Shown here piece by piece: positions 4,258 through 11,874 of a stretch of DNA of 33,524 bases (its first letter is position 1; each line of letters starts with the position of its first letter). The stretch comes from Pseudomonadota bacterium (GTDB lineage: Bacteria > Pseudomonadota > Gammaproteobacteria > Burkholderiales > Thiobacillaceae). The notes beneath the pieces are model-generated. The model was not told the DNA's origin. It saw only the letters and a list, made by a program, of their open reading frames with translations, and ran no database searches. Where the stretch lies: the NCBI GenBank assembly GCA_030653935.1, contig JAURYL010000012.1, positions 1 to 33,524 of the forward strand. The letters are read 5' to 3'. The position numbers and the translations under genes were made by a program.

Positions 4258-4309
4258 GTGCGACTAAATATAGTTGCTAGAGTCAGCGATGTTTGGTTAG
4301 GATTTGTGC

Positions 4310-4558
4310 ATGGGTAAACACGATAAGTTGCTGGCGAAACTTAAGAATCGCCCGAAAGATTTCTCTTTTCAGGAGATCGCCACTCTGTTGGCAGGGTTTG
4401 GTTATGTACTCAATCAGGGCGGAAGCGGTTCACGAGTCAAGTTCGAGCATGAGCGTTTTGTGCCGATATTCATGCATAAGCCACACCCGTCGCCACTTCT
4501 GAAGCCGTATCAGATTGACCAAGTGCTGGATGTCTTGAAACAGGAGAGCTTGCTATGA
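4310..4558 (+). CDS. hicA: HicA-family toxin (module 1)
   Basis: An 82-residue protein starting at the ATG at 4310, with AGGAT about 8 bases upstream. MGKHDKLLAKLKNRPKDFSF, the central GGSGSRVKF and the C-terminal HKPHPSPLLKPYQIDQVLDVLK match the double-stranded-RNA-binding-like fold of HicA mRNA interferases. The classical GSH motif with its catalytic His reads GSR here, a variant I believe is common in one HicA subgroup; the nearest histidines are in FEHER and HKPHP. The stop overlaps the hicB start by 4 bases, the usual toxin-first hicAB order. A TATAGT at 4269-4274 may be the -10. Confidence 0.85.
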   Translation: MGKHDKLLAKLKNRPKDFSFQEIATLLAGFGYVLNQGGSGSRVKFEHERFVPIFMHKPHPSPLLKPYQIDQVLDVLKQESLL

Positions 4559-4896
4559 AAAATACTATGGATTTCAAGGGTTATACCGGGTCGGTTGAAT
4601 ATAGCGATGACGATGGAATTTTTTTCGGCAAGGTGCAGTTTATCCGCGCGCTGATCAGCTATGAAGGCAGCAACGCGGAAGAGTTGCGCAAGGATTTTCA
4701 CGATGGGGTGGATGATTACCTGGCGATGTGTAAGGAAAAAAACATTACGCCGGAGCAACCATTCAAGGGGTCATTCAATGTGAGGGTTGGCCGTGATCTA
4801 CACCGTCAAATCGCGATCGAAGCAGCGCGGCGCGGCGTGAGTTTGAATAGCCTGATCGTCGCTGCCCTGGAAAAAGAAACACACCACGCGGCGTAG
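4555..4896 (+). CDS. hicB: HicB-family antitoxin (module 1)
   Basis: A 113-residue protein. Residues 1-60 (FKGYTGSVEYSDDDGIFFGKV, LRKDFHDGVDDYLAMC) are the degenerate RNase-H-like HicB domain that masks HicA. The C-terminus (about residues 78-110, FNVRVGRDLHRQIAIEAARR and SLNSLIVAALEKE) is a ribbon-helix-helix DNA-binding domain, expected to bind the promoter and repress the pair. The ATG overlaps the hicA stop. Toxin-antitoxin pairing is clear from domains and order; activity is inferred. Confidence 0.9.
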   Translation: MKNTMDFKGYTGSVEYSDDDGIFFGKVQFIRALISYEGSNAEELRKDFHDGVDDYLAMCKEKNITPEQPFKGSFNVRVGRDLHRQIAIEAARRGVSLNSLIVAALEKETHHAA

Positions 4897-7782: not shown

Positions 7783-8142
7783 TCAAACGTGATGCTCACG
7801 GCGCCCCAATCCTTCGGCGATAAACGCTAGTACCAGTGTATTGAGGGAGACCCCCTCAGATTTCGCGCGGGTAGCGAGTTGGGCGTGAATTGTCTTAGGT
7901 ACACGTGCAACGAACTTGCCAGATGCCACACCTCCGCTGTTGGGTGCAGGCACAGGAAAACCCTTCTCTGTCAGTGCCGTAATGGTTGCCATCAGTGCAT
8001 CGCGTCCATTGGCGATGGCTTCCTCCACGGTCTCCCCGTCTGAAATGCACTCGGAAAAATCTGGGAAGGAAATCAGGAAGCCTCCGCCCTCCGCAGCGGT
8101 CAGGGGGCGAATCTCAAACGGATAGTCTGTCAGTTTGCTCAT
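7783..8142 (-). CDS. hicB: HicB-family antitoxin (module 2)
   Basis: A 119-residue protein on the reverse strand. Residues 1-65 (YPFEIRPLTAAEGGGFLISF, PDFSECISDGETVEEAIANG) form the HicB N-terminal domain. Residues 75-112 (GKFVARVPKTIHAQLATRAK, SLNTLVLAFIAEGL) form a ribbon-helix-helix. An AAGGAG Shine-Dalgarno lies 8 bases before the ATG, just inside the hicA-2 3' end. It follows hicA-2 by 3 bp in the standard toxin-antitoxin order and should still be produced despite the element in hicA-2. Confidence 0.9.
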   Translation of the reverse strand: MSKLTDYPFEIRPLTAAEGGGFLISFPDFSECISDGETVEEAIANGRDALMATITALTEKGFPVPAPNSGGVASGKFVARVPKTIHAQLATRAKSEGVSLNTLVLAFIAEGLGRREHHV

Positions 8143-8145
8143 GGT

Positions 8146-8487
8146 TCAATCTCCTTTCACCAACGCCAAAAGCTTCTTCAGGGCACCTCGAAAAACCCTT
8201 AATTCGTCGTTCCCGCGAATGCGGGAACCCAGTGAAATCAACACACTAGATTCCCGCCTTCGCGGGAATGACGGGTTTTTCGATGTGCCCTTCACATAGA
8301 TTGGCTTGACTGGGCGGTGAGCAGGCACCGGCAGGGTTTTGCCATCGGCGCGGACAAACACACAATGGCTGGTGCCGTCCTGCCGCCAGTCGATGCCATA
8401 TTGCCGCGCCACCGTCTGAAGCTGCTCAATCCGCCAATCCAGGGGGTGGCGCCTCATGGACTCAAGCAGTTTTGTGGCGGTATTCAT
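8146..8487 (-). CDS. hicA: HicA-family toxin (module 2) carrying a 38-codon in-frame MITE insertion
   Basis: The ATG at 8487 gives 113 residues. The first part (MNTATKLLESMRRHPLDWR, YGIDWRQDGTSHCVFVRADG) is a normal HicA with the catalytic-type SH motif, continuing to PVKPIYVK. The next 38 residues (SKNPSFPRRRES...SRIRGNDE...) are encoded by the 110-bp element at 8181-8290 plus one 4-bp target duplicate. The normal C-terminus KLLALVKGD then resumes in frame. Excising 114 bp gives an uninterrupted PIYVKKLLALVKGD end and 75 residues, the usual HicA length. Whether the enlarged protein is toxic is unknown, because the insertion falls before the last helix. Longer upstream starts run into repeat DNA and are rejected. 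Confidence 0.85.
   Translation of the reverse strand: MNTATKLLESMRRHPLDWRIEQLQTVARQYGIDWRQDGTSHCVFVRADGKTLPVPAHRPVKPIYVKGTSKNPSFPRRRESSVLISLGSRIRGNDELRVFRGALKKLLALVKGD
8181..8290. mobile_element. 110-bp MITE-like element inside hicA, copy 1
   Basis: Terminal inverted repeats GGGCACCTCGAAAAACCC (8181-8198) and GGGTTTTTCGATGTGCCC (8273-8290) match at 17 of 18 positions. Direct TTCA copies flank the element (8177-8180 and 8291-8294), consistent with a 4-bp target duplication. Inside are two smaller palindromes, TTCCCGCGAATGCGGGAA and ATTCCCGCCTTCGCGGGAAT. There is no coding capacity. The copy at 11765-11874 has the same length and organisation. Confidence 0.88.
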
Positions 8488-8533
8488 GATGAATATAGTG
8501 TTACCTGTGACATCACTCGTAAAGTCAGGCGAC

Positions 8534-8938
8534 GCCGCAAGCGGGAACCCCCCTTTTCCAAAGGGGGGCAGGGGGGATTTACCCAAGGTCGAGCCGCCAC
8601 TGAACGCCCGCTAAATCCCCCCCCAGCCCCCCTTTGATAAAGGGGGGAGCCAGCGCGCCGCAAGCGGGAACCCCCCTTTTCCAAAGGGGGGAGTCAGGCG
8701 ACGCCGCAAGCGGGAACCCCCCTTTTCCAAAGGGGGGCAGGGGGGATTTACCCAAGGTCGAGCCGCCACTGAACGCCCGCCAAATCCCCCCCAGCCCCCC
8801 TTTGATAAAGGGGGGAGCCAGCGCGCCGCAAGCGGGAACCCCCCTTTTCCAAAGGGGGGCAGGGGGGATTTACCCAAGGTCGAGCCGCCACTGAACGCCC
8901 GCTAAATCCCCCCCAGCCCCCCTTTGATAAAGGGGGGA
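8534..8938. repeat. Tandem array of C-run/G-run palindrome pairs (three full units, one short)
   Basis: Units begin with GCCGCAAGCGGG at 8534, 8657, 8703 and 8825. Units 1, 3 and 4 are about 122 bp long, and each has a first palindrome (C6-TTTTCCAAA-G6-CAG6-ATTT), a GC-rich spacer with CAAGGTCGAGCCGCC, and a second palindrome (AAATC7AGC6-TTTGATAAA-G6). The second unit is only 46 bp and holds the first palindrome alone. The units are almost identical; unit 1 has one extra C in its C-run and there is a T/C change in the spacer. The two palindromes within a unit are partly inverse copies of each other, a BIME-like arrangement. Confidence 0.9.
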
Positions 8939-9025
8939 GTCAGGCGTGTCGCGGCCGACCTGAAACCGGTGCAAACGTGACGACATGAAACTGGATGGTT
9001 ACCTTTCAGGCTTAAGTAAGTGCCA

Positions 9026-11764: not shown

Positions 11765-11874
11765 GGGTACCTCGAATAACGCCTGATTCGTCGTTCCCGC
11801 GCATGCGGGAACCCAGTGGAATCAACACTCTGGATTCCCGCATTCGCGGGAATGACGGGTTTTTCGAGGCCCCC
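11765..11874. mobile_element. 110-bp MITE-like element, copy 2
   Basis: Begins GGGTACCTCGAATAACGC and ends GGGTTTTTCGAGGCCCCC; both ends align base for base with copy 1 at 8181-8290, and the length is the same. GATT flanks both sides (11761-11764 and 11875-11878), the expected 4-bp duplication. Inner palindromes TTCCCGCGCATGCGGGAA and ATTCCCGCATTCGCGGGAAT are retained. Confidence 0.87.

What the first reader, a model, noticed from the sequence alone, without database searches (positions are those of the whole stretch)
8177..8294. A 110-bp MITE with 18-bp ends and a 4-bp target duplication sits in frame in hicA
Seen directly: TIRs matching 17 of 18, TTCA on both sides, and 110 + 4 = 114 bp = 38 codons with no stop in the hicA frame. 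Joining the TTCA copies restores PIYVKKLLALVKGD and a 75-residue HicA. The insertion point and the ancestral gene are therefore exactly reconstructible. In-frame palindromic elements that become part of proteins are known from Rickettsia (Rickettsia palindromic elements); I know of no equivalent established for this sequence family.
Basis: partly seen in the sequence, partly recalled or inferred. Interest (0 to 1): 0.8.

Follow-up and report, generated by a model that had tools for sequence, protein, structure and literature searches.

The report
IS5-type mini-transposon inside hicA genes
A 110-base non-coding mobile element built from two bacterial palindromes landed in a small toxin gene without breaking its reading frame, and a second copy did the same to another toxin gene of that kind in the same genome; its ends match those of a known class of jumping genes, which suggests how this kind of palindrome may spread.

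Summary
Window 8181-8290 is a MITE: 18-bp ends matching at 17 of 18, TTCA on both sides, read in frame by a hicA-like gene (113 aa). A same-genus genome holds the natural empty gene (75 aa, 96% identical).

Of 41 copies examined in the genome, 24 have exact 4-bp duplications against 0.28 expected. The core is a head-to-head pair of CGTC REPs, a superfamily reported in 2013 to lack a dedicated transposase. The ends match a 1,245-bp IS in Methylomonas fluvii with a 4-bp duplication and an IS5-family transposase, so IS5-type mobilisation in trans is the best reading. No such transposase was found in this genome.

A second copy sits in another hicA, in frame, within two alignment columns, in opposite orientation, also with a natural empty allele. 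Other copies lie mostly near gene 3' ends.

The Rickettsia-like idea is only partly supported: open frames are no commoner than in shuffles, and in-frame CGTC REP pairs are already published. In models the insert splits HicA's C-terminal helix; I infer a damaged toxin with reading into the antitoxin kept. New variant of a known kind.

The parts
8177..8180 (.). target duplication, left copy (TTCA)
   Evidence: Sequence; single copy at the site in the natural empty allele L052
8181..8198 (+). left terminal inverted repeat GGGCACCTCGAAAAACCC
   Evidence: same kind of end as an IS5-family IS in L104
8181..8290 (+). 110-bp MITE
   Evidence: 41 copies examined in the genome; exact 4-bp duplication in 24 of 41
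8205..8232 (+). CGTC-tagged REP unit 1 (8-bp stem, 4-base loop, CCA tail)
   Evidence: 0 mismatches to the pattern; family definition from PMC3733652
8246..8273 (-). CGTC-tagged REP unit 2, head-to-head partner; ends CTAG where the pattern has CCAG
   Evidence: inverted pair I9; alignment of copies
8273..8290 (-). right terminal inverted repeat, 17 of 18 matching
8291..8294 (.). target duplication, right copy (TTCA)
8146..8487 (-). hicA-like gene with the element read in frame (113 aa)
   Evidence: 75-aa empty allele L052 96% identical; its model's best solved match is T. thermophilus 1whz
7783..8142 (-). hicB antitoxin gene, start codon 3 bases after the hicA stop
   Evidence: Pfam HicB and HicB_lk_antitox; spacing
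11765..11874 (+). second copy of the element in the window, duplication GATT

Best explanation
A non-autonomous MITE with IS5-family-type ends around a head-to-head pair of CGTC-1 REPs. A transposase of an IS5-family relative would recognise the ends, insert the element and duplicate 4 bp. Shown: copies, ends, duplications, two natural empty sites, and an IS with the same kind of ends and an IS5-family transposase in another bacterium. Inferred: that such a transposase moved it here (none was found in this genome). In hicA it lands just inside the last helix. With the duplication it adds 114 bp, so the frame is kept, and no stop falls in the frame used. I infer that HicA is damaged or weakened, and that the open frame was tolerated or favoured because hicB starts 3 bases after the hicA stop and may be translationally coupled. 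The insert also puts a very strong hairpin in the hicA mRNA. How far selection shaped this is unknown.
For: Copies and 4-bp duplications: 24 of 41 exact against 0.28 expected; 3 bp: 0, 5 bp: 2. Empty alleles with a single target at the site: TGAA in L052, TCAA in L228. Ends shared with a 1,245-bp element in L104 with an exact CCTT duplication encoding a transposase that matches NCBIfam NF033581 IS5 family (284.7 bits, cut-off 140) and Pfam DDE_Tnp_1 and DUF772; similar reading frames follow the same repeat in L145 and L181, by eye. Second hicA insertion L025:1148-1257, Pfam HicA_toxin up to the element, within two alignment columns of the first. Same 11 sequences: model of the empty allele mean pLDDT 86.9 with C-terminal helix 62-73; with the insert 52.0, residues 55-97 below 50. 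RNA hairpin -77.7 kcal/mol, z -11.6.
Against: No transposase of this type in G000 (0 matches at E 1e-10; 5 of 23 genus genomes have weak ones). The IS with matching ends is in another, distant bacterium. AlphaFold with 11 sequences cannot show loss of function, and its low-confidence model of the inserted protein still draws the three strands and a C-terminal helix (93-112). Against G002, the first 65 codons of hicA show 5 synonymous and 2 non-synonymous differences and hicB 13 and 1 in 119: no clear decay of the toxin part. E. coli hicAB genes do not overlap and use two promoters (PMC5535158, passages), so coupling is not general.
Confidence: 0.8

Rival explanations
1. Rickettsia-RPE-like palindrome selected to be translated: length and stop-free frames are maintained so that it can live inside proteins.
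For: 110 + 4 = 114 = 38 codons, and both hicA copies are open. In copy 7 the frame is open because TGG stands where the window copy has TAG in that frame. Of the 4 CGTC-core elements, 3 have a frame-keeping length.
Against: Open frames 2.82 of 6 against 2.51 in shuffles; over all 20 sister elements 6 have a length that keeps the frame; only 2 of 41 copies found inside genes (weak on short genes).
Confidence: 0.1
2. A REP pair moved by a REP-associated tyrosine (HUH) transposase; the outer repeats are incidental.
For: The core is a REP dimer, and GTAG REPs are thought to be moved by RAYTs (PMC3733652). 178 CGTC REP units (up to 2 mismatches) occur in the genome, so many are outside this MITE.
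Against: The outer repeats and a 4-bp duplication are features of DDE transposition (established knowledge of the families), and 24 of 41 copies show the duplication. PMC3733652 found no tyrosine transposase gene flanked by CGTC REPs.
Confidence: 0.07
3. The two hicA hits reflect a target preference (near gene 3' ends, or at the hicA-hicB junction), not selection on HicA function.
For: The nearest called gene end is a 3' end for 31 of 41 copies, and for 25 of the 33 with genes called on both sides, against 940 of 1968 random non-coding positions. The hicA sites are about 30-50 bases from the hicA stop codon.
Against: Target sequences are diverse; the two hicA proteins are only 18% identical in the alignment and read the element in opposite orientation. 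A 3'-end bias can itself come from purifying selection.
Confidence: 0.3
4. The 38 residues are an ancestral hicA feature, not an insertion.
For: The frame is open throughout.
Against: 96%-identical empty allele without it; 40 other copies elsewhere in the genome.
Confidence: 0.01

Closest known systems
CGTC-1 REP dimers of Halothiobacillus neapolitanus (Di Nocera et al. 2013, PMC3733652, section 7)
   Same: CGTC-1 dimers, all inside a palindrome GGGaaGCTT-GAAAaACC ... GGTaTTTCgAAGC-gCCC, close to the ends here.
   Different: That section speaks of dimers within palindromes; I saw no duplication or transposase assignment in the parts I read. Here 4-bp duplications and an IS5-family relative make the outer palindrome the transposon ends.
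Rickettsia palindromic elements (RPE-4, RPE-6: PMC3733652 section 15; review PMC10969869, passages)
   Same: CGTC-type palindromes read in frame inside genes.
   Different: Many RPEs are in genes (review: nearly half, from three of ten families); here 2 of the 41 copies examined. The RPE papers themselves were not read.
IS5-family IS of Methylomonas fluvii (L104:5636-6880)
   Same: Same kind of terminal repeat and a 4-bp duplication.
   Different: 1,245 bp with a transposase gene, and no CGTC REP core found.
Other MITEs with the same ends (Methylococcaceae, Halothiobacillaceae, Acidithiobacillus, Zoogloea, Iodobacter, Frateuria)
   Same: Ends and exact 4-bp duplications.
   Different: Lengths 99-303 bp and other cores.

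Membership tests
MITE | short, no transposase gene, terminal inverted repeats | tested here: met
   110 bp, 17 of 18
MITE | target site duplication of constant length | tested here: met
   4 bp exact in 24 of 41
MITE | dispersed copies and empty sites | tested here: met
   empty sites L052, L228
MITE | autonomous partner with the same ends | tested here: inconclusive
   Found in another bacterium; none in G000
IS5 family (by ends) | ends and duplication like an IS with an IS5-family transposase | tested here: met
   L104: exact duplication, NF033581 above cut-off
IS5 family (by ends) | mobilisation by that transposase | not testable with these tools
   needs a transposition assay
CGTC-1 REP | CGTC tag, 8-bp stem, 4-base loop, CCA tail, head-to-head dimer (definition) | tested here: met
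   8205-8232 and 8246-8273 read from the sequence; unit 2 has CTAG in place of CCAG
Rickettsia palindromic element | frequent in-frame location in genes | tested here: not met
   2 of 41 found in genes; openness as in shuffles; gene calls are home-made
HicA toxin (host gene) | Pfam PF07927 match | tested here: not met
   No Pfam match for P0001 or the empty allele L052; its 51%-identical relative L056 matches at 26.6 bits, cut-off 27
HicA toxin (host gene) | HicA fold and hicB next door | tested here: met
   Model of the empty allele: best match 1whz, prob 1.00, E 0.016, none at E 0.001 or better; 6g26_E HicAB complex at rank 38; HicB by Pfam. That 1whz is TTHA1913 is recalled; PMC10865869 names TTHA1913 as HicA. 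The second hicA (copy 7) does match PF07927

The most novel reading that the evidence does not exclude
CGTC REP pairs, the superfamily reported to lack a dedicated transposase and to include Rickettsia RPE-4 and RPE-6, spread as the core of MITEs with exchangeable DDE-transposon ends of the IS5 kind: one core is found here with two kinds of ends and with hybrid ends, and one kind of end is found around several unrelated cores. Intragenic copies such as the two in hicA are survivors at sites where reading through keeps the downstream antitoxin expressed.
Probability: 0.4. Interest if true: 0.7.

Novelty: new variant of a known kind. Interest (0 to 1): 0.5.

Why it matters
Di Nocera et al. left open how CGTC REPs move. 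Elements with IS5-type ends, 4-bp duplications and a CGTC REP core make that question testable: provide the transposase, supply the element, look for 4-bp duplications. The two in-frame hicA insertions with natural empty alleles are ready-made pairs for asking what a MITE does to a toxin-antitoxin operon.

Tried and rejected
Rejected: ancestral hicA domain (empty allele); frame-selected element; single freak insertion (second hicA). Led nowhere: Rfam scan of the window, 0 matches; NCBIfam on P0001, none; search of solved structures with a relative's sequence gave only two designed proteins; literature searches for the peptide motif (0 papers), for Gallionellaceae with MITEs and for HicA with palindromes (nothing relevant that I could see in the listing); an autonomous partner in the genus. 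The end matches outside known copies were mostly further MITE ends; L083 and L086 showed no recognisable partner end.

Limits of the copy count: one search scored only 40 of 120 first-look candidates, so 41 is a lower bound. As a check, all 44 end matches and 30 of the 31 own-genome end matches lie at those 40 places; the other (C49:33026) is a degenerate MITE end. Rows dropped: of 43 local BLAST places, two that matched only 28-30 bp were left out. One copy lacks its left flank (contig edge) and some are truncated or hybrid; they stay in the 41 as misses. One search gave 30 loci. One search gave 12, of which 11 are relatives; 6 were aligned and 5 minus-strand ones, read in the wrong frame, were set aside.

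Weaknesses: the gene caller is a home-made codon score trained on 11 window ORFs; it missed both hicA genes, so other short genes may be missed. The test flagged 2 of 58 places (copy 7 and copy 16); it missed the window hicA, and copy 16 was not followed up. Copy 27 overlaps the 3' end of an AbiEii-like gene. The finding was chosen for hicA, so only the second hicA is independent: chance 0.027 for at least one of 40 other copies in 11 other hicA genes, assuming 240 bp each and no selection.

Full report
What is there. Window 8181-8290 is a 110-bp element with 18-bp ends matching at 17 of 18 and TTCA on both sides. It folds as one long hairpin (DNA z -11.3; RNA on the hicA strand -77.7 kcal/mol, z -11.6). 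The minus-strand ORF 8146-8487 (113 aa) reads through it; hicB follows at 8142-7783, its start 3 bases after the hicA stop.

Is it an insertion? Yes. In a genome of the same genus (G002), locus L052 carries the gene without the element: 75 aa, 96% identical, one TGAA at the site.

Copies. The own genome (3.82 Mb, 135 contigs) gave 40 distinct places, which scored 40 of 120 first-look candidates. A local search of the stretches fetched gave 43, of which 41 were kept. All 44 end-sequence matches and 30 of 31 in this genome fall at those 40 places. The span between aligned ends is 110 bp in 33 of the 40 copies with both flanks. Exact 4-bp duplications occur in 24 of 41, against 0.28 expected from flanks of different copies; 2, 3 and 5 bp give 3, 0 and 2. 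The duplicated words are diverse. In a sample of 31 genomes 17 had matches, all 17 in the genus, several of them to the REP core only; 0 of the 12 genomes from other families matched. The host's name is not known.

Anatomy. The core is two CGTC REPs head to head: tag CGTC, 8-bp stem, 4-base loop, CCA tail, as defined for family CGTC-1 in PMC3733652 (abstract, outline, passages, sections 7 and 15, and part 1 of section 17 seen). [quoted passage not shown] neapolitanus CGTC-1 dimers lie in a palindrome very like the ends here, that the intragenic repeats of R. conorii correspond to RPE-4 and RPE-6, and that more than half of intragenic REPs are dimers or groups encoding 20-30 amino acids. It left out hypothetical proteins under 120 residues, so a gene like this hicA would have been missed. 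The genome holds 178 CGTC REP units at up to 2 mismatches, more than the MITE copies account for. Two copies (L050:2001-2073, L044:3742-3814) carry the same core between different ends, and two more (L048, L049) have one end of each kind.

What moves it. In L104 (Methylomonas fluvii) the repeat is paired 1,245 bp apart with an exact CCTT duplication. The gene between is an IS5-family transposase (NF033581, 284.7 bits, cut-off 140; DDE_Tnp_1 and DUF772). Similar reading frames follow the same repeat in L145 and L181, judged by eye. Among 20 elements with these ends and an exact 4-bp duplication, that IS included, 4 have a recognised CGTC REP core and 16 do not. In the genus the ends seen outside the known copies are mostly further MITE ends, and the transposase has no match in G000 at E 1e-10 and weak ones in 5 of 23 genomes. 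So IS5-type mobilisation is inferred, and the partner is missing here or absent from the draft.

A second hicA. Copy 7 (L025:1148-1257) lies in a different hicA: Pfam HicA_toxin matches profile positions 2-48 of 58 up to the element, and the ORF as it stands is open and ends at an ATGA overlap with hicB. A same-genus genome (G011, L228) holds the gene without it, 84 aa, one TCAA at the site. In alignment A1 the two insertion points are within two columns; the duplicated bases leave the exact residue open. The two proteins are 18% identical in that alignment and read the element in opposite orientation. The genome has 11 Pfam HicA matches, 10 over the cut-off, copy 7's gene among them, plus the window gene, which Pfam misses. 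The chance of a second hicA hit is 0.027 on simple assumptions.

Effect on HicA. With the same 11 sequences, the empty allele models well (pLDDT 86.9) with a helix at 62-73; its best solved match is 1whz (prob 1.00, E 0.016). The insertion follows residue 65, inside that helix, and the inserted allele models poorly (pLDDT 52.0, residues 55-97 below 50), although three strands and a last helix (93-112) are still drawn. This suggests damage but does not prove it. hicA and hicB close together or overlapping are taken to suggest translational coupling in several hicAB classes (PMC10865869, passages); E. coli hicAB is described as non-overlapping with two promoters (PMC5535158, passages). I therefore infer, without a test, that stop-free, frame-keeping insertions are the ones that leave hicB expression intact.

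Is it Rickettsia-like? Weakly. Openness equals that of shuffles, frame-keeping lengths are at chance in sister elements (6 of 20; 3 of the 4 with a CGTC core), and copies lie mostly near gene 3' ends: nearest called gene end 3' in 31 of 41, or 25 of the 33 with genes called on both sides, against 940 of 1968 control positions. Gene calls are home-made and miss short genes, both hicA genes included.

Literature limits. In the held library, searches showed me no paper that ties CGTC REPs to IS5-type ends; most listed papers were not opened and subscription journals are mostly not held. PMC3852290 (passages) lists IS5-related MITEs in archaea. RPE facts come from PMC10969869 (passages) and PMC3733652.

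Noticed in passing
window 4304-4558 (+) and 4555-4896 (+): Another hicA-like gene (PF07927 match at 4370-4528) overlapping the next ORF; no element in it. The next ORF was not identified (no NCBIfam match).
   Followed up: partly
window 8533-8943: Three copies of a ~120-bp unit rich in CCCCCCTTT..AAAGGGGGG palindromes just upstream of hicA; similar tracts flank some other element copies.
   Followed up: no
L050:2001-2073, L044:3742-3814; L048:2001-2093, L049:2002-2088: Same REP core between other ends (GGAAGYGCTGATTAA type), and hybrids with one end of each kind.
   Followed up: partly
L110, L126, L143, L152, L173, L175, L178, L201: Methylococcaceae MITEs of 121-303 bp with the same ends but a different core, several with CTTCGAYAnnCTCAGT-like sequence.
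   Followed up: partly
L019:662-664, L034:5766-5768, L041:781-890, L040:2111-2121: Copies placed at gene ends: 1 bp from the called ends of secA and of a DctM gene, in the 3' end of an AbiEii-like gene, and 9 bp from a PIN-domain gene.
   Followed up: partly
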